A model generated the notes under the pieces. That model was not told the origin of the DNA. It saw only the letters and a program-made list of their open reading frames with translations, and made no database searches. A program made the position numbers and the translations under genes. DNA of 64,000 nucleotides from Sistotremastrum niveocremeum HHB9708 (Eukaryota > Basidiomycota > Agaricomycetes > Sistotremastrales > Sistotremastraceae). The DNA is taken from positions 1 to 64,000 of the forward strand of contig KV419440.1 in assembly GCA_001630475.1 (NCBI GenBank). Direction: 5' to 3'. Every line of letters starts with the position of its first letter. Within the stretch, counting starts at the first letter, position 1. This document shows positions 3,572 through 64,000 of the stretch, piece by piece.

Positions 3572-6500
3572 ATGTCTTCTTCCGTTCGTCAACTCAACAA
3601 GGCTTCCAAAAAGTCTAACCTGGAGTCCAACTCTGCATCAAATACGCCACCAGCAAATGCAACTCATGGAAGTCCTGGTGTAGCTCGGTACGCTGTTCTA
3701 TACCTGTCGTTCCGACTACATGTAGTGCTAACAAATGCATCCGCGTCTGAAGGAAAGCCAATGCGTGGAACCGTGCCCCGCAGACATTTCCCAACAATCC
3801 TCCCCCATCCGCTTCACCACGATTGTCTCCACCCGTCCCACAGGGAGTTCCAGGTGCCTTTCCACCATTGGCTCAACCTGGGTTCAACGGAAGCAAAGCA
3901 AGTTCGCAGGATGAAATGCTACGCGATGTAGCCCCTCTCATGGTACGAGCCAATTATCGTATTGGAAGTTCCCTCCGTGATACTATCTCAGGGGAGCGTC
4001 ATCATGTTCACTACTCGTACCGGGCAGCGCCATCAAGGAACGCTAGTCTCGACAACCCAAGATGCCGACAATTCGGGCGTCCAACTCAAAGATGTCAAGG
4101 ATCTACTGAATCCAACTGCGCCTCTTAAGGACAATGTTTTCATACGCACAAAAGACGTTGAGGGTTGGAGCCCGGTATCTAAACCAAACGGCTCCTCTAC
4201 TTGTTTGTGGTTTTGACGTATTCCTGCTAATAAGTTGTTGCTCACTTGTCTGTCCCAAAAGCTTTCCGTATCGACAATGATATCTCCAGCAACGCACCAC
4301 GCCGTGAACGCGATCTGGAGGTCTGGGAGCCACCTGCTTCTTCATCAGCTACACAAAATCTGCAAGGCGACGACGCCACCTTTGGTGCTCCAGCAACTAC
4401 CGGCGGTGCAAAGAATTGGGATCAGTTTGCGGCGAACGAGCAGATGTTTGGTGTTACGACAAGCTTCGATGAAGAACTGTATACTACCAAACTTGATCGG
4501 TCTGGCCCGGATTTCAAAGAGCGAGAGAGAAAGGCCCAGCAACTTGCTAATGAGATTATGTCGGTGCGTCATTTCCCTTTTGATCTGTCAATTATTTTAA
4601 TGAACGACCAGTCTACCACTTCTAACCCTCACATCGCCGAAGAGAGAAATTTAGTTGACGACAGCGGAATGAACGAGGAAGACAAGTCAGTCAAGAATTG
4701 CATTCATGAACTCTTGCTTTACCTTCATCTAGGTATGGGGCTGTTGTACGAAGTGCAAATGCCTATGTGCCTCCAGGCGCAAGAAAAGGAAATGTCGTTG
4801 GCCCAACTTCCAATCATTCACAGGCGACACCACCGATACCTGAAGTCCCGAAGGTCTCCATCAACGGCGTAGAGAGCTCTGACACCACGCCTTTGCCCAA
4901 AAATGCATCCCGTGCATCCACCAATCCTTCTCAGGTGCGATGAAACTGTCCACATCTTCCTCAGTCGTTAATTCGATATAGGGCCCGAATGGTTTGGTTG
5001 ATAACTTCCGCGAATTCGTTTCCAACGAGAAGGAGCGATTGACTCAAAAGCGACATGCATTGCGCAAAACTGAGATGGACAAAGTGACTTCTGAGCTTGT
5101 CAAATTTAGTCAAGTGTTCAAAGTGCGTCGTTTCGTATTTTAATCCGATGCACTAGGCTTAGCATATCCTCCTTTTCTCTTATCATTAGCTCAATCGTCC
5201 CATCCCAGAAGATCTCGTCACAATCTTAGCTAAGGATGAGGATAAGCAGAAAGCCATCCGGGAAAAGGCAAGCGCGGATGCGGGAGCCTCTAGTGCGCGA
5301 ACAATTGGAAGCACTGTCACCACCACGTCTCCGAACGCGCAGAAAACGAAAGCCTCGATTTCTCCTTCGTCGACCGTACTGTCATCAAAAGCCGTCTCTC
5401 CGACTTCATCGAAACCTTCCGAAGAGGCTGCTACCAAGAAGGAAGGGACTTCAAAAAGCCCTGCCAAACCAACCATCAAAATGGAAATTCAGCCGATTCC
5501 ACCATTCAACCCTAGCAAAGCTCGAGGCTCTTCGGTCGCAAGCACTAGTGTTTCTCCTCCTAATCAGACCGGCACCCCCGCCTCTCCGACTGTCAGCACT
5601 GCTGCTGCTGCCACGAAGTTGAATATCAATGCGTCGTCTTTCAAACCCAATCCAAACGCAAACAGCTTCAAACCCAGTGTGGGTCTCCACTTCGCGATGT
5701 GACGTTCCTATCATTCATGTCCTTTTAGCAACCTATCTCTACCCCGGGCTCAAGCTCTTCTCAATCACCTAAGACAAAGACGACCGAACCCGTAAGTTCT
5801 TACTGGTGCATCTAGCCCGACAATCATTAATTTGAGCAGCCTGCACCACCAAACCCCTTCTTCGGAACTAAGCCTGTGAAGAAGTCCAGTTCGGTGCACG
5901 TGAAGGACGACTTCAATCCGTTCAAGTTTGGCAAAGTGGCTGAGGCGTCAAGTATCAGTGAGGGTCAATCGATGTATATTCTTGCTTCCACTCATATTTG
6001 ACTCAGTCTCTACGTGGCCGTTCAGCGGTAAACGATACATGAGTCTGTTTCCTCCCGTAACACATCAACCACCTCCTGGGCACATGACGCCACCGGGTCC
6101 GCCGCCTCTCCCAACTTTTGAGGAAGATCCATCTCAGGGTCCGAACTCACGACAATATCTCTATACATATGCTCCCTACCCATATCCCGGCCAGGTACGA
6201 GATTTGAGTAATCGCTGCATATATCACACTCTCAGCCCCTGCTCAGCCCCAACAAATGATGCAGGGCGTACCACCACCGCCAGGTGGATACATGCATGGT
6301 CCCTACATGCAGGCTGTCCCATACCCGCCAAATATGCCACCGCCTAACCCACCTGGTGCGTCTTTCGATTTCCCTGTCCTGTAAGCTGGAGTCTTGAAAA
6401 GTGTTGTATTCTCCGACGACAGGAGGCATGCCCCGTAAGTCCTCTCATTGATTCGATCTGAATCATCGTCTAAAATTTGCCGCCTAGCACCTCATTTCTT

Positions 6501-7014: not shown

Positions 7015-8820
7015 CTATGATGCTGAAGTTGCAGGACGTATACTTTGTAAGTTCTTGAGAACACCCGCCTCGATAGTGCAACCCCAAAGCTCCAGTTTGG
7101 CTTTCTCGATCTCCCGCACTAAAGTTTGCCTGCGAAGCTTTGCCTTCGCCAAAACGTCGCTCTTCGTAGAGTTACGCTTCGTGATATTTGCAGATGATGA
7201 TGCAAACTGACGTGCTGAGTGATCATCGCGCTCAATTGAGGGAAGTGTGATCTTCATAATTGGAGGTGAATCTGTGTAGGAAACCGCATCGGGTGTAACA
7301 CCAGAAGACGTTGAGGTCGAAGGGAATGAGGTTATAGGGGATGCTATTCCATCTGAGAGGAGACAGGGAGATGAGCGTTGGATACACGTGTGCGGGGACT
7401 CATGCAACATACCCTGGGGCGGCTGCAGAGCCTGAGTTCCGAACAACCAATCGTTGTTGGACGAAGAGGTCGGGACAGGACATAGCATGGGATCGATGGC
7501 GCATTGGGAGATTGGTGAATCGGGAAAGGTTTGCGTATCAAATAGAGGGAAAGCTTGTATATCGGGGTATTGATAAAACGAAGGGTATTGATCATTGTAG
7601 GAGAAATCCGTGTCCCAATGAGGACTGAAGTTCTCAATCGAAGGGCTCGTGCCTGCGGCGCTCTGAATAAGAGCCATGATGTCTTCCAAAACAGCGTCGG
7701 AACACTCGACATTAGAGTGCGATGGTTGCGCGGAGAGCCAGCTGTCGATGCTACCTCCGACGAATGGTTCTGGCGTCTCGGGGGCAGGTACTGATTCAGG
7801 GGAATACGATTTCGAACGGGCTGGGGTAGGTATATGTGGTGGACCGTTGGACGGTTGCAAGGGTTTGGCTTGGCGGGTTGATGCGTGCTCAGTCTTCTCC
7901 TTGACATACGCATAGGCATCTCGGAGAAGATGGCTAAGCTCAAGAAGTAACTGCTTTCTCCGTTGCGCGGCCCAACTCTCTTGATATTTCTCCGGGCCTT
8001 CACCACGAAGAAATGGATATGGAACGTCCCAATGATCAGCCCCGGCAGGAACGTGACGCAACTTGACGCGCTTCGAAGGAGGTGGGGTAGAAGGTGATGT
8101 CGAGGTCTGGCTACACTTTGGAGTGGCGATGAAACCAATCAAGCCTTTAAGTATGGAAGGAAATCGAGGGTCACGACGCAAAAAGGCGGCCATGGCGATA
8201 TGCGTCGGAGAAAGTTCAGATTGTGATGATAGAGAGGTCTTATCGAGTTGGCTCATGACGGCTTGGGACAAAATGTCACGAGAGGAAGTGCAAGCGTTCT
8301 GGATGCGAGAGGGAGGGAAAGGCAAACGGAGTGGACGCTGATTTCTTGCGGTAGGGGTAGGGGTATCGGCATCCAGGTCGATCGGATTGCTAGACGATCC
8401 CGTTCCATGAGGGTAATGCACACGAAGTCGGGAGGTGTCAACCTGCGCGACCGTGCCGGCGACACCAAGGAGAGAAGGATGAGATCTGAGTAATTGGCGT
8501 GGCGGTGCGGAACCGCTCTCAGGAAAATCAAGGACGGGAGCTAAAGGTCTGGCTGGTGGAGGTCCTGACGGAGGAGTCAAACTGTTCTGAGACGATGTGC
8601 GACTATTTTGCGGACGCGCACGGGCGGGGGAGGGACGAATTTCTGCCGACGCTAGGTGGGCTGCTGATGATTCAGAAAAAGAGTTATGAAGACCGAAAAG
8701 TGCAATGGTCCCCACATTTTGATTCACTGATCCTGGCAAAGCCAATGGAGGCGACCTACCTCTGCCTGTCGGCGACGGCGGTGGAGAGCCAAACAGGGAG
8801 TCATGGTCATCATCGCTCAT
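7015..8820 (-). CDS. Unknown Ser/Pro-rich protein, 601 aa
   Basis: This is a single long open frame. The start was set at the first ATG (8818-8820; MSDDDHDSLFGSPPPSPTGR), because the frame upstream begins only with non-ATG codons. The first half is Ser/Pro-rich and looks disordered. The middle contains a more ordered stretch around YPFLRGEGPEKYQESWAAQR followed by helix-forming KQLLLELSHLLRDAYAYV. The C-terminus is a basic helical segment (KAKLRRQTLVREIEKAKLEL) that may be a coiled coil. No catalytic motif or known domain is recognised. It is divergently arranged with the 9172 gene, leaving about 350 bp for a shared promoter region. A role in transcription or chromatin is possible from composition only. 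Confidence 0.75.
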   Translation of the reverse strand: MSDDDHDSLFGSPPPSPTGRGRSPPLALPGSVNQNVGTIALFGLHNSFSESSAAHLASAEIRPSPARARPQNSRTSSQNSLTPPSGPPPARPLAPVLDFPESGSAPPRQLLRSHPSLLGVAGTVAQVDTSRLRVHYPHGTGSSSNPIDLDADTPTPTARNQRPLRLPFPPSRIQNACTSSRDILSQAVMSQLDKTSLSSQSELSPTHIAMAAFLRRDPRFPSILKGLIGFIATPKCSQTSTSPSTPPPSKRVKLRHVPAGADHWDVPYPFLRGEGPEKYQESWAAQRRKQLLLELSHLLRDAYAYVKEKTEHASTRQAKPLQPSNGPPHIPTPARSKSYSPESVPAPETPEPFVGGSIDSWLSAQPSHSNVECSDAVLEDIMALIQSAAGTSPSIENFSPHWDTDFSYNDQYPSFYQYPDIQAFPLFDTQTFPDSPISQCAIDPMLCPVPTSSSNNDWLFGTQALQPPQGMLHESPHTCIQRSSPCLLSDGIASPITSFPSTSTSSGVTPDAVSYTDSPPIMKITLPSIERDDHSARQFASSSANITKRNSTKSDVLAKAKLRRQTLVREIEKAKLELWGCTIEAGVLKNLQSIRPATSAS

Positions 8821-9171
8821 GAGTGCGCATGAAGAAAAGTTGTAAACAAAGCCAAACAAGTACCGACGATCATGAACGCGGGGCAGGACGCGCTGAACGT
8901 CGTGAAGCCATCTCAGTCCTTGTAGTATTAAGTAATAAATTCACCCCATGTCTTGGATCGCATATATACACGTCTCGGAGGAGAGCACTATGAGGTGGAC
9001 GCCACTGACGGCCGAGACACCGCAGACAGTCTCAGGCGGTGTTTAGGGCCGGGCAAAGCGCGTCGTGAGTCTGAAGAAGTGCGGGCGCGAGTCGCCGCCA
9101 TCGCCCTCTTCGCTCTCCACGGACATTTTTTCTCGGTTTTCTTTGGTTTTTCTGGTTCATCGTTCACGACA

Positions 9172-14318: not shown

Positions 14319-14416
14319 GTGACGGTTCTGTTTGGTCGCTTGTTTGAGCCTTCGGAAGCACAAGACTGACGCGTCGCGCTCACTAAGAACTACTCTCTTT
14401 CTTGCCACATACAACC
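14319..14416. promoter_or_regulatory. 98-bp bidirectional promoter between YIP4 and RPT2
   Basis: Start codons of the two divergent genes lie only 98 bp apart, so their promoters must overlap. The interval contains the palindrome ACGCGT near 14,369 and a CTTGCCACA word near 14,402. The latter is close to the reverse complement of the proteasome control element GGTGGCAAA but not exact. Whether either word is functional is inference. Confidence 0.5.
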
Positions 14417-15968
<1,552 letters not shown>

Positions 15969-16171: not shown

Positions 16172-19100
16172 ATGGCTTTGAACGCTGGTCATCGTGTCTC
16201 CGGTCGCCCAAATGTCTCAATTCCACCTGGTGCTCGTCCCCCCGAAATGCATTCCCCTGCCTCGGCCTGGGCATCGTATGGCCTTCACCCCGACCGAACG
16301 TCATATGTAGCACCAGTTCCATTCTCTCCCCAACGTCCATCTTTCATAAATCCTACTTCGCCTAGACGATCTTCATTTCATGACTCTCCTTCGGAATGGT
16401 CATTCCAAGACCCACAAGGATCTCGTCAATCATACCAAAGGAACGAGACTCTACAACCTGGACCCAGTTTCAATCAACATAGACACTCCCGGAGTGATCT
16501 AGGACCACAGCTACATCTGGGCCGTCAGGAAAGCTTTAGTTCTTTAGCCGGAGGACAGGATTGGGAGGTTGTTATACTTTGGTCTATCGTTTGAATATAC
16601 CTCACGTGAGCCTTTTAGGTGACTTCTCCGACCCCTGCATCGCTATCCAATGAGTTATCACACTCTAGGTGAATAAACTGTGTCACTGTAGTGGAATTAT
16701 ATCTGATGCGCATGAAGCCTCTCCGCAGAGGAATCACTATATAGATTCCAAGAGGGTACTCTCCCCGAACCTGACAACCAATGGCATCGTTTGGTCCCTC
16801 AAGAAGCCAGAGATAGCCTACCTGGGAAGGAGGTTCAACGCCAATCTGTTATATTTGAACTCATCAACTCGGAGAAAGAGTATGTATCTGATTTAGAGAT
16901 CTTGCAAGACGTGCGTATCACATAGAATCTAAGCGCGACATCCACCCTTACAAATGCATAGGTTTATATCAATCCCTTAGTTAACGCTAATCCTCCAATT
17001 ATGCCTCAAGACTATCTTCTTGCTTTCACGAAAGAAGTATTCTGGAATCTCAATGAAATCTTGCACGTTCATCAAAGGTTGCTTGCAGCTCTCTTTGCGC
17101 GGCAACGCGACCAACATCCGCTAGTCCAGAGCATCGCCGATATCGTCCTTGACAGTATGTCATTTATCCGTATATCAATCAGGCGTTCACCTGGATTATA
17201 GCTGCTCTAAAATTCCAACCCCCTTACGAATCATACATCAAACACTATCCTCTCGCCGAAGCTCGACATCGTCGCGAGCTCAAACGAAATCCACGCTATC
17301 AACATTACATACAAGAATGTTCTCAAAATCCCCGGACGCGCAAGCGCGATCTCATCACATTTATATCTCGTCCCGTCACACGCCTACCCAGATTGCGGCT
17401 CATTTTAGAGCAAATCCAGAAATTGACGGAACCAGATCATCCCGATCTCGAAACAATGCCCATTATCTTGGATCTCCTCGGTGACTTTATACGAAGCACC
17501 CAACCCGGCATCGAAGCTGCTGAGAGCAAAGTTAAATTCTGGAGTCTGAGCGAAAGTTTAGTCTTCAGGCCGGGCGAGATTATAGTGAGGAATACATTTA
17601 CTGTATCTTTGCGCCTGCTCATCTTTGGTAGGATATGGATCTCTATAGTGATAATCGAACGCTCGTGTATCAGGGCCCTCTTGCCAGGCGTCAGCGCTCT
17701 GAAACAGATTGGCATGGATGGCATGACATGGAGGTAGCCCTCCTTGATAACTACTGTAAGCGTAGAGCTTCTGCATAGCCGTGAATTATTCCCTGATATC
17801 CGTTTCAGTACTCATCACCAGGAAAGAGAAACGCGAATCAGGTTTCAAATACATAGTCGCTTCTCGGGTTCGTGCAATGCTCCCCATCAACCATTGTAAG
17901 GCTCAAAAGTTTGTCTAGCCTATCCCGCTCGAATATCTTCGTCTGGGTGCGTTCGACGCCCCACAAGAAAGCCGTAAGGAAAAGTCTTCGGAAGGAGGCG
18001 GCATCCTAGATGCTGTCAAGTTTCACTATATACCTGTATACCCCTTTACTGTATACCATGCATCAGCGAAATCTAGCCGCAGATACACCCTATATGCGGC
18101 CAGTGAACGTCTGCGAGAAAAATGGAGGAATTGCTTGGTTGACGCGATAGGCGTCAGACAAGCGTACAATGACGCTAACAAGGTATGTTGCGCACTCCAG
18201 GTGTTTGTCTCCTCTAATAGCCATGCCACGCATAGCATTTTGCCGCGAACCCGCTTAACGACGGGCATTTTAGGACTCGAACTGTCCAGGTTCCTCCTGA
18301 TGCGCCGGGACCATTCCTGGGCAAAGTCAATTCTGCCGCCTCCTTTAGTAAGTGGTGTGTGGTCATATAATTCATTACCCCTCATCAAAGCTTTGACAGT
18401 GAGCGGCGGCCGAAGTTTCATTGCTATCGGAACATCAGGTGGCGTTCACGTCCACGCACGCGGGACCAACGGCAAGTATATGCTTATCAATGTACCAGTA
18501 CATCTACTGAAGCTTTGGCTCAGAGATCCGCGGCGCGTTGCGTTTACCGTTCACTTCGTCGATATCAGCCTTGCAAGGTTTCAATAAACTCATCCTGCAA
18601 TGCGAACAAGGCGTGCTGTCATATTCTCTGGATCTTCTGGCTCGCGTCGCATTACAAAACGCCTCTCCTTCTTTGCTCGAAGCGTCAATGGAGAATATCT
18701 CGCAACGAGATGAAAGCGTTCAGTTTTTCAGGACCGGGATCGTTGCCAATCGAACTATCGGTATGATGCTTCCCTAACCATCGAACGTCATCTCACCCAG
18801 CTCTAGTGGTGTATGCTTCCCGAACTTTCAGGCAGTCGAATATCAACGCTCTCGAGGTCGTGCATCCCCAGAACGTCATGAATGCACAGCGACAATACAC
18901 GATGGCGCCCTCTTTTCGATCGTTCGGTTCGGTATATAAACTTCCTCAATGTGATCGAGACCCGGCCACTGATAGCTTGATTCAGCCTTTCTATGTTCCC
19001 AAGGATGCCTACGACGTTACAATGCTCCGCAAGACCATCGCGATTGCAACTGAGAAAGGACTAAGTATTGTCGACCCTACTCAGTAAGAAATATTTTCTA

Positions 19101-27430: not shown

Positions 27431-27604
27431 GATCTCACTCCTTTGTTTCATCCCTTTGCCTAGTCACATTCTCAGGCTTTCTTCTTGAGCAGATCGCTCA
27501 CAATCTCTCTCCTTTGTTTCAGTAGCATTTCTCCACTTCAAGGTCTCACCTCTTCACCTTCGCATCGTCTTCGCTAGCCGTTCTACTTTAACGCTACTCC
27601 TTCG

Positions 27605-28296
27605 ATGCCCCAGCCCCAACCTACATCTACACCATCCCTCCCGCCTGCAGAGTCTGCACCTCCTGGAGACCCGCCTCCGTACTCTCATCCCCCGGCATCG
27701 GGCTATCGCATTGCCCTCACCACCACCTCACCCTTCCCACCACTTCAATCGACATTATCACCCTGTTCCTGGGACGCCGATCGTGAATCACCGATCTTCT
27801 TCGGAAGTGCAATATTCGCCAGATCAGTCCATCCCTGCAAGATCGCACCAAGACTCCAGCCTAGCTGCCGTGTCCCATATGCAGGTCGAGAATATGAACA
27901 TCACGGCAGATATGATCTATTGCCTTTCATACCTGCAATGATGGAATTGGTACCCACTTCCCGCGGATTGATCCCTGAAGATCGGCACCCCATTGAAGGC
28001 GGTTATGAAGAGACCGGCGAGAAGTTGTACCACGCTATGGGCTCAGTCAATGGGATCATGGTACCTGGTAAAACTGCCGAGCATCTCGTAGGTGTTTCAC
28101 CGGCGAGTCTTGTTAAGAGTCTCACTTATATTATTTGTTGATCGCGCAGGGCGGGTGTAATCTTCCTTTTGGTGGTGGGGAGCACGTCCTTCGGGAAAAC
28201 TACAGTATACTGTATTTCTTTCTCAATTATAACGGAGCATCAACTTCGGAGGCTGATTACCAATGTAGATGCTGGAAGCAAGACGTGATCTCATAG
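27605..28296 (+). CDS. DM9/DUF3421 repeat protein with PPxY leader, 190 aa
   Basis: Three exons (27605-28087, 28150-28211, 28269-28296) keep frame and encode 190 residues. The Pro-rich leader includes PPPYSHPP, a PPxY-type WW-domain ligand. Two DM9-like units follow. The first has SPIFFGSAIFARSVHPCKIA and CRVPYAGREYEHHGRYDLLP. The second has GLIPEDRHPIEGGYEETGEK, LYHAMGSVNGIMVPGKTAEH and GGCNLPFGGGEHVLRENYSI. Together they match the DM9 consensus (PxGAxxGG...LYxxRAxxxGxxxPGK...GGxEH). The tiny last exon supplies the closing LCWK. DM9 domains are mannose-binding in some animals; fungal roles are not established. There is no signal peptide, so the protein is likely cytosolic. Confidence 0.82.
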
Positions 28297-34490: not shown

Positions 34491-36952
34491 AGAAGTAACT
34501 TGATCTGTTGACATTGCCTCTCTTCGAGCTAACCTCATTATGGAACTCTAGCGTATATATTTATTATTAGCAATCGGTGTGCTCGCTTCGATGCCTGCAA
34601 ACAACAACCCCTCGTCACTTTCAAGCATATCTTATTCTCCATACTACAAATATGATCTACCAGGTCACTGGCCCATGCTAAGACTAATTAAGATTGTGTG
34701 ATCCATCAATTTTCTGCAATGATGTCATGTTCTGTGGGGGAAACTCCGCTAAAATGTCCAGCAAACGGGATGTGATTGCAATTACGAGGGCTGACATGGC
34801 CTAGTCTCTTGCTCGTTCTTTGCTTGGAGGCTGCTAGTATGAGCAAGCACGAATTTATTGATCTATGAATTTTTTGTCAGCACTATCAATGAGTATGGAC
34901 AAAAGTTGAAAGTTTCTTCACTCTTCGAGCGTCAACACAGCCTCCAACACATCCATGTCGTAATTTTTTAGTGTCAGACAAGAATAATGCCATACGAGTT
35001 CCGAGCCCATGGGAGATGTTCCGTCATCATCTCAGGATTATCAAGGTTCAGGAAAACGATAGACCAGACCAGACATGCATCCAATCGCGACGATGCCATA
35101 TCATTGAATCCAAGAGATCTGAACTTAGGATGCACGCCTGTTCGGCGTGGTTTGTTAATCCATACACAAAGTAGACTCCAATGTATCGTCGATGGCTGGG
35201 TCATATAATCCATAGGCAAATTGCATGGCAGGAGAAATGAGGGAGTCCCTGAACGAACGGCGAATCGGAGACAATGTGAAAATCAAATGCTGATCTGGCA
35301 GTACCTGAGAGGAACATATCAGCGTAGACTATCAAGTGAGCCTCGAAAAATCATGGATCAAAGGATACACGTTGAGGAGGGGCGTCTCCTCTTACCCTCA
35401 CACATTTTTGTACCTGATTGGGCTGCCCAATGGTCCGAAAAATTGGAAATTGTTCAATTGCTCGAGCTCGATCAACTGACACCAACAAAGATAAGAGGGG
35501 CATGAGAGTTCGCTCACCGCTAACTTTGGCTTCAAGTTACCCACCATCACCCCTGACGAATCCTCTATGACGTTCAAGAAGATCTAGGGCGTGAACCTCA
35601 TAACAATCCAGATGATAATGATGTGGAGTCGTATTCTGGGTGCTTGTTGATTTTGGTGCGGTGTCATGTGAAAGCTCAAGGGATGGGTAAAGGCGCTTAG
35701 TAAGAACTCCTGAAGAACCATTAACACTAGGGTGTCTCGATAGACATAACACTAGGTGAGATTTGAAATACTATCATTCAGAACATAACATGGTATGCTT
35801 GTTGGAGGTAGCATTGAATCGGGACCGCGGCCGCGATTTTGTTGCTGTCTCTACTTAATTTGGAAAACCCCAAGCAAACTCGCTCACATTCTCGTCCACT
35901 GTCAGCCATGTCCTCCCTTGGGATTACCGAAGACCACTTGTGTCCCTCAAGATTTGCAGCAGAGCAAAAAACTGATTGGATGGCGTGCGATCGATCTAAC
36001 AACGAACTAGGCCCGGTGCCTTTGCTTACCCCAGGAGCCAACAGCTAGCCACGTCGCAATAGATCGTCTCCCAGAGGGTCAAGATGGTAGCCCAGCTCTG
36101 AGGCTGTCTATTATCTTCACTCTTAGTCCGCCCGGGAATCGCAGCTTGGAGCAGATCAAGCATCCCATGACGCCAGCGAGCACAGCGTCGGTGTTGGCAA
36201 AAGATCACCTCGTGACAGGTACACGTTGTGAGTGCTTCCACTTATATCAGTGAATTGAGTATTCAGGACGCCGGTTGTCGCAATACCACATTCCAGAGGC
36301 AAGAAAAGAGTAACATAAAGCAGATATTATCGAGTCTGACGTCTGGCATCAGAGGCTCACTAGTGAACTTGAACTTCTACTCTCCGTTTCGAAAGAGGTT
36401 TGGTCCTTGTAGTCCCGGGTCCCAAGCCTGGGTCTGGAGGCATTTCATTTCGTGGTCCCCGCGAGTCCATTTGGAAAACGAGATGAATGAGGACCGTGGC
36501 AACAAAACAGGAGAATGGCTTTCAGATTGTTGGCTTCTGCCATGACCGTCACAGTTGCCATACTGCTTGTGAGTGAGTTGTGGCTTGACCATCGCTATAT
36601 TTCCTAATCATCGCTTAGACGACGTCCACGAGTGTTAGGAGTCCAATCATGCGGCAGTAAATTCATAGGCTCACAAATGTCAATTTATAAAGATAGAGTT
36701 TCCGGTGCTCTATAACTTGATTTTTCGATTCCTGAAAACAGAGTATCATGCCCCTAGGTGAGGATAAGATCTTTAATCCGGCGTGCCGGTGTCTTTTGAT
36801 TTCTCCCTGATTAAACCAATGAATCTTCAGAACTTTCACCTTTGCTCCGAGCAGCCAACGACGCAATCCTCTACCATCGCGCGGACTTTCAAGTCGCTAA
36901 TCTGCTGGCAAATCGTTTTTCATGCTCCGCTGCTGCTATCTTCAACTTGCAA
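34491..36952. other. Gene-poor region
   Basis: About 2.5 kb with no supported gene. Scattered stretches of 60-105 codons on both strands (for example 35221-35505 and 36228-36545) lack domain signatures and codon regularity. A conserved block just before 36953 (CATGCTCCGCTG at 36921-36932) also recurs ahead of the two downstream paralogues and is probably 5' UTR or promoter. Confidence 0.4.
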
Positions 36953-37892
36953 ATGAGTCAGGCAGAATCGTTGACCTCAGATAACTCCAGCGACCATCCT
37001 GGCAAAGATGGACATGGGCCTCCTGACAAGAGTGCCCAGCCCCGCTCACGATATCGAGCGACCACAGGTCAGGATCAGCGCGCTGAATGGAATCACTTCA
37101 ATGCGATTGACGTTTCTGTCAGCCTGCGACCAATGTCGCGACAGCAGAAGTAGATGTGAGCCCAGCGGTCAAGAGGACTCTTGTTTCATGTGCTTCAGGC
37201 TAGGCATTGGTGAGATTTCCCTCCAGCAGTCGACAATTTACTGGACGCAAACAACCCCTATGTTAACAGACTGCGTGTTCTCTGGTACGCTTGATCGTTC
37301 ATATCGAGACGACGACCACACTAACACCTCATAGCTCCTAATCGCAGGCGTGGCCCTCACAAAGGGTAAGTGATTGTATTGCTCATCTCCACCAGGCTTC
37401 ATTCCATTGGAAGGCATGTGAGGGCAGTCGAAACCCGTCTTCATGAAGCGGAAGCGATCATGGGCATACTCCAATCTTTGCCACATGCCCAAATCCGCAC
37501 AGTGCTAGAAGGCCTTCATCAAGATCCCCTCGCCGGAAGAGTTCTTGAGCGCGTCGCGCATGGTGCTTACGGCCCCCTTGGACGGGATCAATATCATCCG
37601 AACAGTGAACTCGGCAATCTCGATCAGGAAGTGGGAGGTACGGTGGGTCTACTTCAACATTCTCTAACTTCAACCTCCTTTTCGTTCATGATTAGGTTCC
37701 AACCTAAGATACCCGAGCAATGATTGGCAAGATCAAATCATTGCACGTCTTATTCATTTTGTTGACGATCCTGCCAACGAAACGAATAACAATGACGACG
37801 ACGAAGGCCGTCAAGTCGGCCCGCTCAATCCAGGTGCAGTTTCTCATTCTCCGGACTCCTCTTCCCCTCAAACACCTCCCGACACAACTTGA
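36953..37892 (+). CDS. Mini Zn(II)2Cys6 protein, paralogue 1, 222 aa
   Basis: Six exons: 36953-37067, 37123-37209, 37270-37284, 37335-37365, 37414-37637, 37696-37892. Spliced, the zinc cluster reads ACDQCRDSRSRC, EPSGQEDSCFMC, FRLGI-DC, that is Cx2Cx6Cx8Cx2Cx6C, the fungal binuclear zinc-cluster fold that binds CGG-type DNA sites. The last Cys comes from the 15-nt exon 3. A basic linker APNRRRGPHKG follows, then a helix (HVRAVETRLHEAEAIMGILQ), the block GLHQDPLAGRVLERVAHGAY-GPLGRD and a C-terminal YPSNDWQDQIIARLIHFVDD. The usual large fungal transcription-factor domain is absent. It is first in a tandem array with the same splice positions. Confidence 0.85.
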
Positions 37893-38926
37893 AATTTGTG
37901 TCGGAGTATTTTTCGATCGAGAAAGGCGGGCTCAGGTCATGTCACTCTTCATTATCTTTTTGGATCTACTGGCTTTAAAGCGGCCTATATCTTCTTATTA
38001 GACATATCCGTGATTGAGCAGCACCAGCGCAGTATTGATTCTTCAACTTTCTTCGCTTTGTTTCTTTTCTCATTTGTTCCGGCCTTCTTCCTTGTAATAT
38101 AGAGCCGTGTACGGCATGTTGTGATTAAGCGCATAACTCTGATTTGTTTTACCAGTCGATCGGCGTGCCCTCACCATGCATCTACGGTAAACTTGGGGCA
38201 CGATGTGCTCCGTGATTGTCAATGTTGCTGAAACCAGACGCTCACGAGGTATGCCCACATGGAAGGATTGGATGCAAGGGGTGAGTATCGTCTTTGATGA
38301 TCCATGGAATGTTTTGATCGAACTTGTTGCAGGAGCAATGCAGAGTCCACAATCTTCTAACTTTGACGGCCCCCCGAGGTCGTTGGAGGGCAGCCTTTTT
38401 CGCCGGGACACTCCTGTTACGTTGGAGAAGCATGAAGCCAACTAGTTCGGACTTGAATGCATCCCTTACAAACTGCCCCTCATGACTTAGATTCGGTCTT
38501 CGCGTTCCTCGAAACTACTGAGAAGTGGGCTTCAGTGCTTTCGGCTTTCGTTTTCCTTGATCTTCCTGCACTCTGGTCTAGGAGAGAAGAACGTCAGTAC
38601 CGGATGCTGGAATTCCGGCAATGAGACCATCTTTATAAGTTTGAAACCAATACTGTTATCTTTAAATTTTCGATGACGTATATAGCGAGACGGCCGAAGG
38701 TTTTGCCGTTCGCAACTCTGGGCTCGCTACCAAGCCCGCCATCACCTGCGCACTTTCCACCATGTTATGGCCATGCCCGACGATTCTTCAGGATATTTGC
38801 GGGATCATGCGAGTCCTTCTATCATACACTGCTGACTTCATACGCAGCGGACTATCATACACCGCTGACCTTCTTATCTATCGCTGTCATTTCATGCTCC
38901 GCTGGCACGTCTTTCGAAATTTCGCC
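37893..38926. other. Spacer between zinc-cluster paralogues 1 and 2
   Basis: About 1 kb. One 80-codon open stretch (38203-38445) has no recognisable family. Just upstream of paralogue 2, TATCATACACTGCTGAC and TATCATACACCGCTGAC (38820-38873) form a short direct repeat, and CATGCTCCGCTG recurs at 38892-38903. Confidence 0.4.
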
Positions 38927-39809
38927 ATGTCGCTCCCAGGTCTCTCTCCACCAACCAACGCCACTCCAAGAGTCAACGACGAGCGCACAGCGACAGGGAA
39001 AGGCTCTCGGACCTCGAGAAGTCGTGTCACACAAGGTCAGTATCCTGCATGATCACGTATATCTCTATGCTCTTGAAATTAATGCTCCGAATAGCGTGTG
39101 ACGGATGTCGACAGGCACGTAGTAAATGTGAGCCCAGCGGCCAAGATGAATCATGCCTGATGTGTTTCAGATTAGGAATTGGTAAGCGTCGCAAGCAATG
39201 CAGAACCGATGGGCTAATAGACCCACATCCTTGCAGATTGTTTGTTTAATGGTATAGCGTATAGAGAATGACAATCATGGAGAGAAACTAAGCTCATTTT
39301 AGTGCCCACGCATAAGAGAGGACCCCTCAAAGGGTGATTTTTCTTCTTCATTTTCCATCTCTTATGAATATCGACTGTAATAACTCACACTCTCCGAAGC
39401 CACACCAAAAAGCTTGAAGGTCGCCTCTCCGAAGCGGAATCCATCCTTGGTATATTCCAAACCTTTCCTAACGCAACAGTCCAAAATGTTTTGGACGAAC
39501 TAAACAAAGATCCACTGGCCGGGAGGCTGCTAGAGCGAGTCGCCCACAGTCCATTCGGTCCTTTTGGAAGAATGCGCAATAGTGAAGACACTGACCTCAG
39601 AGATGTTAGTGATCAGACCGAAGGTGTGTTCCGGTCTCTCAACGTCCGCAGTGATCCTGAATCCTCTGACGAATTCGTCCAAACCCACAGAACGTGCTAC
39701 TGAAGGTCTATGCTTGGCTTGGCAGAGCCGGCTGATTGCTAACGTTCATGAATCCACAAGCGGCGTCATCGATGACATGCCAAGTGTCCAAGGAAGCCAC
39801 GCACCGTAG
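38927..39809 (+). CDS. Mini Zn(II)2Cys6 protein, paralogue 2, 194 aa
   Basis: Six exons: 38927-39035, 39095-39181, 39237-39251, 39303-39333, 39400-39623, 39691-39809. The exon 2 to 5 lengths (87, 15, 31, 224) equal those of paralogue 1 exactly. The cluster reads ACDGCRQARSKC, EPSGQDESCLMC, FRLGI-DCLFNG, again Cx2Cx6Cx8Cx2Cx6C with the last Cys in the 15-nt exon. The linker is VPTHKRGPLKG, then HTKKLEGRLSEAESILGIFQ and ELNKDPLAGRLLERVAHSPF-GPFGRM. The C-terminus has AWQSRLIANVHE, matching AWQDRVIARLRD of paralogue 3, but is shorter than in its siblings. A DNA-binding regulator is likely from the family; targets are unknown. Confidence 0.85.
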
Positions 39810-41643
39810 GTCTCAACCTTACAGCCGCAACTCGAATCATGGCGGATGAATCCTCTTCCCATCCCATCTCCTCCTGTTTCCGTAAAGCCTGCGCTTAGAA
39901 ACTAGTTTTTTAACGTTCACATGCGCCCATACTCTCCAGCCTTAATGAAACTTCCACCTTTATTTCATTAAGGGTCTCGTTTTGATTTCTTTAATAGGTC
40001 AACTTGATGGTAGACTCAGTAGTGGCTAGATCCAGCACATTCGCATGTACCATAGGGGCTCATCTCAGTGTACGTGGTATTCTAGACACGCACTATCAGG
40101 CGCTATCTCAAACAACATTGTATGCGAAGGAAATCAAGCAGTACTCAAACCTTTGTCGACTCGCCGGACGTATTCTCTACAAGGCTGATATACGTATGAG
40201 GCGGTGCATAAAGATATCCAAAGAAGTCGGATTTACAGTGTAAATCGCAATTTGACTACCGGTCTCCTGACCCAAGAAACGTGGCAGCGGAGACATTCCC
40301 ATTGGTCCTACGTATCCCTCATCTCGGAGACGCTGTAACCAACATTGATGCTTAGTAAGCAATCCTGATCACACCTACATGAATCCTCCTGAATTATGCG
40401 ACTCGGACGCTCAACGCATACTCGCAATGCATGAGATTTTGAGACAATGCATGACCACGCCAGACTTGAGAATTAGCGAGATCAGTCAAATTTCCTAATC
40501 ACCAGCGAGGCCGCAAGAGCCCTGGAAGCCCATATAGTTTACTAATAATATTAATAGTAGCACAAATGCGGAAGAACTTTAATCGCAATCGGCATCGCGT
40601 CCACCATTACGCCCCTTGCCTTCACCCAAGCTCCGACCAAGAATGCAGACTTAGGAACATGCTCAAGGGTACATCGAGTCGCCTGTATAAATTCAGATGC
40701 GAGACTGGTCCACGATGGACCGCTCAGCCTGAGTCCGCAACTGCTCGAGCTCTTTCCACGGATCCCCGATGGCTGCGCCACAAAATGCTGCTGTACTGAT
40801 ACCTCTATCCTGGACAATAGGCCATCATCACTGCAGCCTTCGCAGCAACTTTTTACGTGATCCAGATGCCCCGTCTACGCCGCCGAGCAGGACTTTGTTG
40901 CGACCAACAACTTATTCAACGGGTCCGCGGAACTCTAATGCGAGCCCTTCGTGCTGACCGAATCCCTGGTACCATTTTGTGAGAGCTGAATTGTCAATCA
41001 TGAAAATTCTGTTGTTATTAAGCGTCGCACAAGAGCCTCCTGAACAAAACTCACCGGTGACAGCAGAAACCTCAAAAAGTGATGCATCGCTCTAGAGTCG
41101 TGATTTAAATTCGAGGCCACGGGGGTTGGTCTTCCGGTGATACTGGGCAGGAAATTGATCCCGCCCGGGACCTGCAGATGACCAGATAGTCTAACGAATA
41201 TTCTCTAGGCCTCAGGCATCGAAACAGTGATGGTGAGCACGATTTAGTTACCTATTGGAAGTGCTTCCTATCATTTTATTTTGCTACCGGCGCACCCCTA
41301 GGAAAAATTGTTCGGGTGCTTTTCCATAAAAGGCGGAAAAATTTGATAAGCGCTCCCGGACGACGGAACACCCGATTTATGTCGTAACGGCATCAAAAGT
41401 GTAGGAACGTAGGGTTCTCTATACGTTTCATAGAGGATATTTGGTAGGTGGATACCGGAACGTCCTGGTGGGTCCTCATCCTCGCCTTTTCGCCGTTTTC
41501 GGTACAAAGTGTCTAAAAGATGGATCCCACCCGTAGGTTTCCTTGGCCTTTGAGCAGATCCGTTGAGCGGATTTTGCCCGCATTCACTTTCGATCTTTTC
41601 GTGCTCCGCTATCTGTCCGACAAGTCTCGGGAGACGACACGCA
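39810..41643. other. Spacer between zinc-cluster paralogues 2 and 3
   Basis: About 1.8 kb without a supported gene. Open stretches at 40004-40243, 40566-40799 and 41298-41666 (minus) have no signature; the last overlaps the start of paralogue 3 and is probably chance. A diverged copy of the shared 5' block (CGTGCTCCGCTA, 41600-41611) lies 44 nt before the next ATG. Confidence 0.4.
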
Positions 41644-42569
41644 ATGAGCAAGTCGAGTTCACTCATCTTTGAGCAGCGTCACAACAACGGCGGAAACGAT
41701 GGGCGTCAAGGTCCCAACAAGAAGGAACAGCCTCGCTCCAGAGAACGGGCGACACAAGGTCAGGAATGTCATTCAAAGAGTGATTATGCGGAGACTGACG
41801 TACTGTCAGCTTGTAATCAATGCCGCCTAACACGAAGTCGATGCTTGCCTAGCGGGCATTCGGGTGCTTGTCAGATGTGTTTCAGACTAGGCATTGGTAA
41901 GAGCAAAGCGTTCATGATTATCAGTGAATTACAACAATAAAAATACCTCCTAATCTATCAGACTGTCAATTTAACGGTATAAATGGTTGGCTACATCGTG
42001 GATATCATGAGCTCACGATGTATAGGTCCTAACCGAAAGCGAGGACCCACGAAGGGGTAGGTAATCTGTATCAATTATGCCCCCTTGACGATACTACAAA
42101 TAAATTCCAGACACCTTAACGATCTAGAAAACCGACTTGCTGAAATGGAATCCATCATTGGCTTACTACAAATGATGCCTTGCACTCAGATCCAAGGAAT
42201 TTTCCAAGAGCTAGGCAGAGACCCAGGCGCTGCTAGGACTCTCGAGCGTATTGCCCATGGTCCCTATGGTCCTTTCGGCCGGGACCTAGGCAACGAGGAC
42301 ATGGAATTTCGTGATCGTCTTGAAAGGAAGGGTATCACATTTATTCACTCATTTTTCTCGATCCATTGATCTCTGTTACGCACGTAGGAGAGTCTCATAC
42401 CAGTGATGTATATCCCAGCAGCGCATGGCAAGATCGGGTCATTGCACGGCTTAGGGATATCATAGATGACCCCGAGGTGGATGAGGGTGATGAAAGTCGT
42501 GAGGGCAAAGCTCACGAAACACCAGCGCACATCGTTCGTTTTTCGAGCCCGGATTCGAGCAACGTTTGA
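41644..42569 (+). CDS. Mini Zn(II)2Cys6 protein, paralogue 3, 216 aa
   Basis: Six exons: 41644-41758, 41810-41896, 41962-41976, 42026-42056, 42111-42331, 42388-42569. The cluster reads ACNQCRLTRSRC, LPSGHSGACQMC, FRLGI-DCQFNG with Cx2Cx6Cx8Cx2Cx6C spacing. The basic linker is GPNRKRGPTKG, followed by HLNDLENRLAEMESIIGLLQ, then QELGRDPGAARTLERIAHGP-YGPFGRD and a C-terminal AWQDRVIARLRDIIDDPEVD with an acidic end. As in its siblings, the middle-homology/fungal_trans region of standard Gal4-like factors is missing. The coiled-coil-like helix after the linker suggests dimers, as in Gal4-type proteins. Intron phases match paralogues 1 and 2 throughout. Confidence 0.85.
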
Positions 42570-44790: not shown

Positions 44791-46389
44791 CTCGGATCGC
44801 TGACTCATCGTTCGAGCCGACTAGGTGGCGAGTCTGCCATGGACAGGCTTATCCTAATCTCTCCCGGTCGTATCTGAAGCACAGAAAGCTTTCGATGACA
44901 GAAAGGAAACATTATCAATGCGAAAACAAACACAACAACAATTATAAACACCGTCACGGTATTCATATCAAAGGTTGGCAGCGTCACTACAGTACTGTAC
45001 TGTCAGACACAGGTATAATCCCACAAAGATAAATCGAAAAGGCTAGCATCAACGTCAAACGCCGAGAGGAAGAGAAAAGAAGAGAGAAGCCAATCCAAAC
45101 AATCCAAACAATCCACATCCTCATCGTTCCGGCTCCGGGCCGTCGTCCCGAAGACCGAAGACCGAAGACCACTCGTCATGATGCATGATTTTCTAGCGCG
45201 GGCTCAATTGATCAAGTTGGGCCTTAAAAATCACTCTATTATCAAAACATATTATATCGGGCCAGCAAGAATTTAAAGAGCGATGAGAGGTTATCGAGGA
45301 CCGGATGTCACGATTGGAAAATGCCACTGGCAGTGAATCAGTACCAGTGCCAGTGCGACGACTTAAGCTTTGAAAATTGGAGGTCTATACAATACGGTAC
45401 AGTACATGTATATGCGCTGAATTTGCTTTTGAGAAGTGAAATGTGACCCTGGGTCCCTGACGTCGATACATAAGTCTTTGAAAATATTGCGGCTGAGCGC
45501 TGAGGCCAATTGGCTAAGGCACAGCCCTGGACCTCTTTTGGGGAGCTGTCATCGTCTTGTCTCGGCGGTTCTGCCGGTTCGGCACACAGTAATAGTGTAA
45601 TACACTTTAAATTGCAGACGTATACCCTGCGATGCCACGCACAAATATATTTCGCAGATAGAATTCATACCGGTAGCACAACTCAGACTCAGACTAAGTC
45701 ACAAGATCTCATTTTTTATTAATATAAATATTGTTTTCTCAGATTTTCGCAAGCTGTCCACCCGGACTCCACCGTGACATTTTACAGAGGTTGCACAGGG
45801 ACAACAACACGAGGAAAGATTACTTATGAAAGCCTGTGATCCTGTGAGAACGTCTCGAAGGCTTGATAGTAGTAATCGGTTTGATATCTATTGATTGACC
45901 GGGGGCTGTGGTTCTGGATATTTGGATTGGTAGGTTGTGGTCATTGTGGTTTTGGGATATGGATGGAATGTGTGGTAAGTGCCAGGATTATCGACCGGAG
46001 GATATTCGTTGGGTTATTGAGCAGGCATATGTCCATTGGGAGTTTTATTCTCATATCGCTTGCATGGCCGAATGATATCTCGAGTGAATCGTTGGCTGTT
46101 ACGGAAGAAGGTGTAACCGTGCAAAGAGCCATTTATCGAGCAGCAAGAGCCTCTAAAAGGCATCCCGGAGTCGGATATCGCCGCAAAAGGAAAGCCGATC
46201 CGGAGCCGGACTTCGCACGCGAGTCGGATCTGTCGGATCGCGGATTCCTAAAAGAGGAAATCGCCCGAGTCAGGATGATGACGAGTAGCATGAGGATGGT
46301 GAGGCCCTGTTCGTGCTGTGGTTGTGACCAAGCTCGATCTCGGTGTTCCCGAGGGATGGAGGGAGATCCCCCTTTCAAATTGCCGAAAT

Positions 46390-47604
46390 TTCAGATGTGA
46401 TTTCGTGAATTCGGGATCGGGGTGGATAGGTGATTCTGTTGAGTTCTGTGAGGGCGTGGATGCGGAGAAGAATGAAAGGAGAGGGAAGAATATTAATATG
46501 AGAGATAGGTTCTGAGGGTGTTACGCTGAGAACGAGGGGGGAAGAGTGGGATTCGCAATATGCATGGGAGACTTGGACGTCGGGGGTGATGACGCGTTCG
46601 CTATTCTTGCAGGGAGTACAGAGTAGTCGTACCGTGCTCGTGGCATCGTGGCATCAAGAGCACGAGGCTAGGCTGGTCTTCTCGTTGACAGTTGTGTAGC
46701 TATAGCGTTATCTGAACTTGAATGTTATTGACATGGAAGACGAAGATGAGGCAGTGCGGATATTCGGGGCTGTATGTCCGATCAGCTGTGGGTTTTGTTC
46801 GCTGATTGCTATTTCGAATAAGGTCGATACAGATAAGGATCGCATCAAGTCTTCAACACTGCACTATGCCATCCAGATCCCATCGTTGTTCGCATAAACA
46901 CTCTCCGAAACGTTTCTATTGCTGTCAATTGAGCTGTCGATGTCATGAAGTCTAGTACTGCAGGACCCCTGGTAGTACATATATATCCCAGATCCGGCCT
47001 GTCGGGTAAAACAGGCTCGAAAAAAAGGGCAAAATTCCCTTAATACGGGGTTTTGGGCGAAGCTGAATGGTCCACCCGATGCGCATGGATGAGTGCGTTC
47101 GATTGCCGGTATGTTCGAGAGCATACCTATATTAGGGAATTTTCAAATCCAGAATTACCGTTTTTTTGTTAGGGTAAAATAGGTCAAAATCTGGATTTTT
47201 CGGATCAGGGATTGACCACGACTGTCAGGGGTCCTAGTACTGCTACTGCTACAGTTGCTTCCGCTCCTATACGTCTTCCCTGCTTCTGTACCCCACTTGT
47301 GCACGCTGTCGCTGTCGGAGTCAGATGGGGTGAAACAGCTTCGTTAGGGATGCAACACCCGTTGATCGCTGATCGAGTTTCCCCAAGCAGCAAACAGGTT
47401 TGATCCGCTACTGCCATTCGACGATCCTCACATCAGATCCATATGGCACATCATTCTCGTGATCTTTTGATAAAGAGCCTTGGGGCTGCGAATGATGCGA
47501 TCCTGGATCCTTGACTTTTATCTCCCTCTCCCTAGACTTGCTGCTTATCCACTGTCTTTTGTGCTTCTGGTCTTGATTGACTTTAGTCTTGAGTCTGTTG
47601 CACG
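46390..47604. repeat. Duplicated upstream region, copy A
   Basis: This non-coding stretch aligns by eye with 61,950-62,825, in the same order and orientation. Shared landmarks include TGGATAGGTGATTCT, GTTACGCTG, AGTTGTGTAGCT, CAGCTGTGGG...TTGTTCGCT, ATACCATCCAGAT-type words and CCATTCGACGATCCTCA. It directly precedes the mucin-like gene A and presumably contains its promoter. The copies are clearly diverged, with many indels. Confidence 0.65.
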
Positions 47605-62825: not shown

Positions 62826-64000
62826 ATGCCAAGATTGGACGAGGTCCTGAAAAGCCGAAACACGAAAGGCCCTCTAGGTATTCTTCCTTCTCCTCCTTAT
62901 CCGCCCCGTCTAATAATCACAATATAACATATAGGACCCCCCTCTGGATCAACCACGCTCGACCGCTCTTCGGCACCTTGCCACTTCCCCTCCGCGACGG
63001 TTTTCATGGTCTACACAACAACTTTTGTCCGCACGAACCCCGCCTCCCAATTTGAAAAACGGACAATAACCACACCCACGGTTCCATCCCCCTGGCCTTC
63101 GTGGTGGGGTTTGGGACCCGTAATTCCACCTCTCTCTACCAACTCGGATCCTCCTCCTGATCCTTCTTCTGCCCTATCCACGACTTCCTCTTCATCGATT
63201 CAGGAATTGTCGAGTGCAAGTGATGGTGCTGAATCGACTTCCACGATGACGACGACGACTTTCCTGAGTACGAGCATGACTACTTCTATTTCTACGAGCA
63301 CGGACACGATGAATCCTACGAGTACGGGTACAGCGACTTCTGCGAACACGGGCACAATGATCTCTATGAGCTCGAGCACAATGACCTCTACCAGTACGGA
63401 GGCGAAGACTCCTACGAGGACGAACACGAGTACAGTGACTTCTACGAATATGAACACAATGACTTCTACGAATACGAACACAATGACTTCTATGAGCACA
63501 AGCACGATGAGTTCTACGGGGACGAGCACAATTCCTTCTATGAGCACAAGCACAATAACCTCTACGAGCACTGGCACAACGATCTCTGCCAGTACTACCA
63601 TTAGTACGATACTCGCGGACAGCGTCTCAACGATCAGTCCCGTAGGTCTTTCTCTGGTATAAGCCTCTGATCTTGATTTTAACCGCCTCACTATACAGCC
63701 CCAATCAACTTCACAAAACTCAACTATACTAATAGCACCCTCATCCCACCCTACCGAAGCACTCTCCAAAGGTGCCCTATCAGGCATAGTAATAGGCTCC
63801 CTAGTCGCCCTATCGCTTGTATCCGCCTTCCTCTTCTGCTACATCCGCAGACGACGAAATAGAAATCGAAGAGGGCAGGTGCAGGTCGTTAGTCAGTTTA
63901 TAATCCAAACTCCTGCTGGTGAACCGGCCGGGATCAGTAAGTGTCTTTTGCGTCTATGATTTCGAACTTGAGGTCGAGAATGCTGTAGGAGAACGCGGTA
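62826..64000 (+). CDS. Mucin-like single-pass membrane protein B, partial at window end
   Basis: Exons 62826-62877, 62935-63641, 63699-63936 and 63989-onward, with the 3' end outside the window. Splice phases match paralogue A. The reading runs MPRLDEVLKSRNTKGPL, HFPSATVFMVYTTTFVRT, the conserved dibasic site SQFEKR, then a Trp-rich patch PWPSWWGLGP. A long Thr/Ser/Met-rich tract of about 8-residue repeats follows, then QNSTILIAPSSHPTEALSKG and the membrane helix ALSGIVIGSLVALSLVSAFL with FCYIRRRRNRNRRG. The last bases read R-ERG, aligned with the start of A's cytosolic tail. The ATG aligns with the second Met of A. A wall-associated or sensor-like role is inferred. Confidence 0.75.
63270..63600 (+). 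repeat. 24-bp minisatellite coding for Thr-rich octapeptides
   Basis: Within protein B, units close to ACAATGACTTCTACGAATAC + GAAC recur with a 24-bp period (best at about 63,430-63,530) and encode TMTSTNTN-like octapeptides. Outer units are more diverged but keep the period. The frame is preserved throughout. Confidence 0.8.

What the first reader, a model, noticed from the sequence alone, without database searches (positions are those of the whole stretch)
36953..42569. Tandem array of three mini Zn(II)2Cys6 proteins with identical six-exon structure
Three intact paralogues of 194-222 aa lie in direct orientation. Exons 2, 3 and 4 are 87, 15 and 31 nt in all three, and exon 5 is 224, 224 and 221 nt. 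Each has a complete zinc cluster (Cx2Cx6Cx8Cx2Cx6C), an RRGPxKG-type basic linker, a dimerisation-like helix, a shared (G/S)P(Y/F)GP(F/L)GR block and a C-terminal AWQDRVIARL-like helix. None has the large fungal_trans domain. They may be short DNA-binding regulators or competitors of full-length factors, perhaps lineage-specific. The local duplication is seen directly; the function is inference.
Basis: partly seen in the sequence, partly recalled or inferred. Interest (0 to 1): 0.75.

Follow-up and report, generated by a model that had tools for sequence, protein, structure and literature searches.

The report
Three short fungal zinc-cluster regulator genes
A stretch of what looks like a fungal genome carries three neighbouring, long-ago duplicated genes for unusually short Gal4-like DNA-binding proteins with one shared exon layout and a shared upstream DNA element; they are probably working gene regulators of a known kind.

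Summary
Three direct-orientation six-exon gene models lie at 36953-37892, 38927-39809 and 41644-42569. All 15 introns are GT-AG and phases agree; exons 2, 3, 4 are 87, 15, 31 nt in all three, exon 5 is 224, 224, 221 nt. Products: 222, 194 (189 with another acceptor) and 216 aa. Each passes Pfam's Zn_clus cut-off; nothing else does. A six-frame profile scan of the window found no convincing fourth copy.

They are old duplicates under protein-level constraint: gapless 102-codon core, 59-63 identical residues, dN 0.27-0.34, dS undefined or above 1.4. Their profile matches solved Gal4 and Lac9 from zinc cluster into the dimerisation helix. No fungal_trans match appeared in the proteins or in 30 frames from the gaps and flanks.

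New here: a 14-nt element, TTTCRTGCTCCGCT, starts 35-47 nt before all three start codons and nowhere else in the window within two mismatches; 0 of 1500 random triples shared such a word.

Best reading: short dimeric CGG-binding regulators acting by site occupancy or heterodimerisation; activator versus competitor is open. No fungal database was available, so lineage-specificity is untested.

The parts
36918..36931 (+). shared 14-nt upstream element, copy A, TTTCATGCTCCGCT, starting 35 nt before the ATG
36953..37892 (+). gene A, six exons (36953-37067, 37123-37209, 37270-37284, 37335-37365, 37414-37637, 37696-37892), 222 aa, Zn_clus at residues 38-77
38890..38903 (+). shared 14-nt upstream element, copy B, TTTCATGCTCCGCT, starting 37 nt before the ATG
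38927..39809 (+). gene B, six exons (38927-39035, 39095-39181, 39237-39251, 39303-39333, 39400-39623, 39691-39809 or 39706-39809), 194 or 189 aa, Zn_clus at residues 36-75, short diverged C-terminus
   Evidence: (189-aa form)
41597..41610 (+). shared 14-nt upstream element, copy C, TTTCGTGCTCCGCT, starting 47 nt before the ATG
41644..42569 (+). gene C, six exons (41644-41758, 41810-41896, 41962-41976, 42026-42056, 42111-42331, 42388-42569), 216 aa, Zn_clus at residues 38-77
36881..36930 (.). convergent GCGGA / TCCGC pair upstream of A (36881 and 36926); possible CGG-type half sites, inferred
38847..38902 (.). convergent GCGGA / TCCGC pair upstream of B (38847 and 38898), with a CGG-N11-CCG at 38848-38864; possible binding sites, inferred
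41567..41609 (.). convergent GCGGA / TCCGC pair upstream of C (41567 and 41605); possible CGG-type half sites, inferred

Best explanation
The locus is an old tandem triplication of a complete, short Zn(II)2Cys6 regulator gene. Shown from sequence: three coherent six-exon models, an intact zinc cluster, a basic RGPxKG linker and a Gal4-like start of a dimerisation helix, protein-level constraint on the core, and no fungal_trans domain in the models. Inferred: each protein dimerises through the helix after the linker (with itself or a sister) and binds CGG-type sites; lacking the large middle domain, it acts mainly by occupying sites or by pairing with other factors, so it tunes or competes with full-length relatives. 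Also inferred: the shared element just upstream of all three starts is a common control element (core promoter or 5' leader), and may be a site through which the proteins regulate their own and one another's genes.
For: Zn_clus above the curated cut-off in 3 of 3 (24.8, 22.9, 22.6 bits against 21). The profile of the three matches 9 distinct PDB sequences at E up to 1, all listed as zinc-cluster regulators, best GAL4 at 7.8e-07 over profile positions 36-113 and LAC9 at 3.6e-06. Core of 102 codons without a gap; changes at codon positions 1/2/3 are 29/19/64, 32/26/61 and 33/25/57; 30-39 of 59-63 identical residues use different synonymous codons. Exon 5 of A is modelled as a 20-residue helix followed by two more (mean pLDDT 70.9, pTM 0.37, 3-row alignment). 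Shared 14-mer upstream. Precedent: passages of PMC4559421 report that N-terminal pieces Yna1p(1-185) and Yna2p(1-180), about this size, bind CGGAGA-containing DNA in vitro, and propose positive autoregulation of YNA1.
Against: No transcript, binding or genetic data. The acidic tails of A and C fit an activator as well as a competitor. No full-length relative is in the window, so a competed-with partner is only supposed. B's C-terminus is diverged and short. Two of 15 intron comparisons score above z = 2 (intron 1 A-B 2.54, intron 2 A-B 2.08), so neutral similarity between A and B may not be fully erased, which weakens the inference of selection on the upstream element for that pair.
Confidence: 0.5

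Rival explanations
1. They are small self-sufficient activators: DNA-binding and dimerising front half plus a short acidic tail that recruits the transcription machinery, without need of the large middle domain.
For: A and C share a tail motif SPDSS.
Against: B has almost no tail; acidity alone is a poor predictor of activation; nothing was tested.
Confidence: 0.25
2. They are the front parts of ordinary full-length Zn(II)2Cys6-fungal_trans factors: either missed downstream exons exist, or the genes were cut down from such a factor.
For: From memory only (a lead, not a test): full-length basidiomycete factors with a KRGPPKGY-type linker followed by PFGPSGR-like and WQDxL-like blocks. Annotation errors that separate the two domains are common in databases according to passages of PMC10141177, which deals with the reverse case, middle domain without zinc cluster.
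Against: Each model ends in a stop after the shared C-terminal segment. 30 plus-strand frames picked in the gaps and flanks gave no fungal_trans match; hits there were all below cut-off. The picked frames are not all frames, and short exons could be missed. Only about 1 kb separates A's stop from B's ATG. This speaks against missed exons, not against descent from a longer factor. A text search for the recalled motifs found no paper.
Confidence: 0.15
3. They are decaying duplicates with little or no present function.
For: B's C-terminus is short and diverged; a 16-nt stretch downstream of B's stop resembles the end of A's last exon (family D18), which could be a remnant.
Against: No stop or frameshift in the three models; all six cysteines kept in 3 of 3 while synonymous sites are saturated or nearly so.
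Confidence: 0.1

Closest known systems
Gal4 / Lac9 DNA-binding and dimerisation region (PDB 3coq, 7uik, 1d66, 1cld)
   Same: zinc cluster, basic linker and beginning of the dimerisation helix align with E 7.8e-07 (7uik) and 3.6e-06 (1cld) to the three-protein profile
   Different: the match ends at profile position 114; the GPxGR block and the WQ helix have no PDB match at E up to 1; the x8 spacing in the cluster and the RGPxKG linker differ from Gal4 (alignment); no long activation region
Full-length basidiomycete Zn(II)2Cys6 factors such as DsAce3 and ScRoc1 (PMC12997857, passages seen)
   Same: PF00172 zinc cluster in a fungal regulator
   Different: those have PF04082; these three do not.
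Yna1/Yna2 of Hansenula polymorpha (PMC4559421, passages seen)
   Same: two neighbouring-family zinc-cluster proteins that pair, with a CGGAGA motif also in the YNA1 promoter and a proposed autoregulatory loop; fragments of about 180 aa bind DNA
   Different: Yna1 and Yna2 are pathway-specific activators and the 180-aa pieces were made by truncation; no sequence comparison was made here

Membership tests
Fungal Zn(II)2Cys6 binuclear-cluster proteins (Pfam PF00172) | six-cysteine cluster scoring above Pfam's curated cut-off | tested here: met
   24.8, 22.9 and 22.6 bits against 21 in 3 of 3; cysteine pattern exact in 3 of 3
Fungal Zn(II)2Cys6 binuclear-cluster proteins (Pfam PF00172) | binds zinc and CGG-type DNA | not testable with these tools
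   needs purified protein
Gal4-type dimerising zinc-cluster regulators | linker plus coiled-coil dimerisation element after the cluster | tested here: inconclusive
   profile match to GAL4 runs from cluster into the helix and a 20-residue helix is modelled, but Pfam Gal4_dimer is below cut-off in C (14.9 against 22) and not listed for A or B
Zn2C6-MHD (fungal_trans, PF04082) transcription factors | middle homology domain PF04082 in the same protein | tested here: not met
   no match in 3 of 3 at E up to 1; none in 30 chosen frames of the gaps and flanks
Competitor or microprotein-like regulators | shares binding or dimerisation domain with a full-length factor and inhibits it | not tested
   no full-length partner in the window; function not measurable here

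The most novel reading that the evidence does not exclude
A self-contained family of miniature Zn(II)2Cys6 regulators, defined by zinc cluster + RGPxKG linker + helix + GPxGR block + WQ helix and never carrying the middle domain, that has been kept as a tandem set and regulates itself and its sisters through a conserved CGG-containing element just upstream of each start codon.
Probability: 0.15. Interest if true: 0.55.

Novelty: new member of a known kind. Interest (0 to 1): 0.35.

Why it matters
Most attention to fungal zinc-cluster regulators goes to the large proteins with a middle domain. A kept set of short ones would be a natural test of what the zinc cluster and dimerisation helix do alone, and of whether fungi use small DNA-binding proteins to tune larger ones. 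The shared upstream element offers a concrete, small test of self-regulation.

Tried and rejected
Rfam at gathering scores and tRNA search: 0 matches in the window; the tRNA scan used a bacterial setting.

Relatives elsewhere: viral contigs with a 103-aa stretch of A (31 pattern stretches, none confirmed) and with the alignment (26, none); genome contigs with the alignment (24, none) and with exon 5 (130, none). These collections hold prokaryotes and viruses, so the misses say nothing about fungi. NCBIfam: 0 families for A; one member of three with one hit at E 0.2.

Papers: nine text searches; two searches returned 0 papers. Among the rows listed I recognised none about short zinc-cluster proteins without a middle domain; only listed rows were looked at, and titles and abstract starts are what I saw except for the passages read (49 gave only a reference-list hit).

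Upstream element as coding sequence: rejected, because its offset to the main ATG is 31, 33 and 43 nt (frames 1, 0, 1) and its start is ATG, ATG, GTG. Number of its matches alone is not decisive: with up to two mismatches 1.01 are expected and 8 of 100 shuffles reach three; the case rests on 3 of 3 being exact to the pattern, which was itself derived from the three copies, on position, and on the triple control (0 of 1500). In one search the 14-mer control was not run; exact 8-mers were shared in 5 of 400 and exact 10-mers in 1 of 400 random triples (a few overlapping draws may have been included or skipped).

CGG-type sites: GCGGA/TCCGC are not enriched in the window (125 against 117-119 expected) and convergent pairs within 60 nt number 4 against a simulated mean of 3.1; three of the 4 lie just upstream of the three genes, the fourth in A's exon 5. 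Spacings differ (45, 51, 38), and the three are not independent because the genes are duplicates; I looked at this after seeing it. CGG-N11-CCG: 12 matches against 11.4 expected; 4 of the 12 (38601, 38848, 39632, 41120) lie inside 36953-42569, none within 300 nt upstream of A. Weak.

Order of duplication: A-B closest in 677 of 1000 bootstraps of the core, so unresolved. Fold search was not run because the exon-5 model has pTM 0.37.

Full report
What is there. Three genes in direct orientation were rebuilt from the DNA: A 36953-37892, B 38927-39809, C 41644-42569. Exons 2, 3 and 4 are 87, 15 and 31 nt in 3 of 3, exon 5 is 224, 224 and 221 nt, and the phase after each exon is the same in all three. 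All 15 introns are GT-AG, 48-67 nt with B's exon 6 at 39691. For B a second acceptor at 39706 gives 189 instead of 194 aa; I prefer 39691 because its intron is 67 rather than 82 nt, but cannot decide. No transcript data were available.

More than chance. The looser five-cysteine pattern occurs 3 times in the six-frame window and 0 times in each of 20 mononucleotide shuffles. A profile of the three finds their own exons at E from 3.7e-39; the smallest exons score poorly (E 0.05 and 0.14 for exon 4 in C and B), as short exons must. The best match outside the array has E 0.52 (18507-18719, minus strand), so there is no convincing fourth copy, though pieces under 15 residues were not scanned.

How old and how constrained. 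Over the 102-codon gapless core 63 (A-B), 60 (A-C) and 59 (B-C) residues are identical. NG86 dN is 0.27, 0.33 and 0.34; dS is undefined for A-B and A-C and 2.5 (NG86) or 1.4 (YN00) for B-C. Introns are close to unalignable: 13 of 15 comparisons have z below 2, the exceptions being intron 1 A-B (2.54) and intron 2 A-B (2.08). So the duplications are old and the core has been kept at the protein level. Branching order is unresolved (A-B closest in 677 of 1000 bootstraps).

What the proteins look like. Each has Pfam Zn_clus above cut-off and nothing else above cut-off. Against the PDB, A alone matches GAL4 at E 0.00031; the three-protein profile matches 9 distinct sequences at E up to 1, all zinc-cluster regulators by name (GAL4, LAC9, PPR1, LEU3, ethanol regulon factor), best 7.8e-07 over positions 36-113. 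Nothing matches the GPxGR block or the WQ segment. Exon 5 of A is modelled as helices 2-21, 24-36 and 38-49 at modest confidence (pLDDT 70.9, pTM 0.37). A and C end in acidic tails.

Missing middle domain. None of the three models has PF04082, and 30 plus-strand frames that I picked in the gaps and flanks have no match to it; the few hits (EST1, DUF1368, HTH_11, MSL3_chromo-like, Dimer_Tnp_hAT) are below cut-off. Not every frame was tested. According to passages of PMC10141177, apparent loss of one of the two domains in databases is mostly an annotation error, but that paper deals with middle domains that seem to lack the zinc cluster.

A shared upstream element. Within 300 nt upstream, the longest word common to the three genes is TTTCRTGCTCCGCT, starting at -35, -37 and -47 from the ATG. 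It has no other match in the window, both strands, with up to two mismatches. None of 1500 random non-overlapping triples of 300-nt stretches from the window shared a 14-mer with at most one mismatch. No comparable word (12 or 10 nt with one mismatch, 9 exact) is shared in the 400 nt after the stops. The element's frame relative to the main ATG differs (1, 0, 1) and it begins ATG, ATG, GTG, so it is unlikely to be conserved for a peptide; in A it opens a 20-codon frame that overlaps the main start, in B an in-frame 11-residue extension. It contains CCG, and a GCGGA lies 38-51 nt before its TCCGC in 3 of 3, which would suit a zinc-cluster protein; this was noticed after the fact and the counts over the window are at chance level.

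How it most likely works. Shown: intact genes, intact clusters, Gal4-like front half, constraint, shared upstream element. Inferred: dimers that bind CGG-type DNA, alone or as mixed pairs, and act by occupancy; the upstream element is a common control element and perhaps their own target. PMC4559421 (passages) offers a precedent for DNA binding by 180-aa N-terminal pieces and for autoregulation in a zinc-cluster pair. Rivals: small activators with acidic tails; front halves of, or cut-down descendants of, ordinary full-length factors; decaying copies.

Compared with the known. By Pfam they are members of the Zn(II)2Cys6 class and fail the Zn2C6-MHD architecture. Passages of PMC12997857 show full-length basidiomycete members with both domains. 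My memory of full-length basidiomycete proteins with a similar linker and similar GPxGR-like and WQDxL-like blocks is only a lead; a text search for such motifs found no paper, and no fungal sequence collection was available. Whether this is an Agaricomycete was not tested; the eukaryotic identity rests on no prokaryote-like genome being held, the spliced genes, and Pfam hits such as the proteasomal ATPase, LsmAD and RhoGEF domains elsewhere in the window.

Verdict. It is a new example of a known class with an unusually compact form and an added upstream element; interesting, not startling.

Noticed in passing
window 46300-46397, + strand (frame 45885-46397): An open frame ends in CCGCDQARSRC, which matches the first half of a zinc cluster (C-x2-C-x6-C) but has no second half before its stop; 4.4 bits, E 3.8 in the profile scan and no Pfam match. 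Chance or a broken relative.
   Followed up: partly
window 39848-39863, + strand: A 16-nt stretch after B's stop codon is 88% like the end of A's last exon (D18); possibly a remnant of a longer C-terminus in B, possibly chance.
   Followed up: no
window 36922-36981, + strand: The shared upstream element gives A a 20-codon upstream frame that overlaps the main start, and B an in-frame ATG 33 nt upstream of the chosen one; translational control or a longer B is possible.
   Followed up: partly
window 27578-28138, + strand: Open frame with a DM9 repeat (E 3.9e-22).
   Followed up: no
window 4234-4869, 14387-15106 and 17153-17734, + strand: Open frames with LsmAD (E 2.5e-21), proteasomal ATPase OB (E 2.1e-10) and RhoGEF (E 7.5e-19) domains: ordinary eukaryotic neighbours.
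   Followed up: no
window 7018-8940, - strand: A 641-aa open frame without a Pfam match at E up to 0.1.
   Followed up: no
window 63290-63579: Tandem array of 24/48-nt units, 67-76% alike.
   Followed up: no
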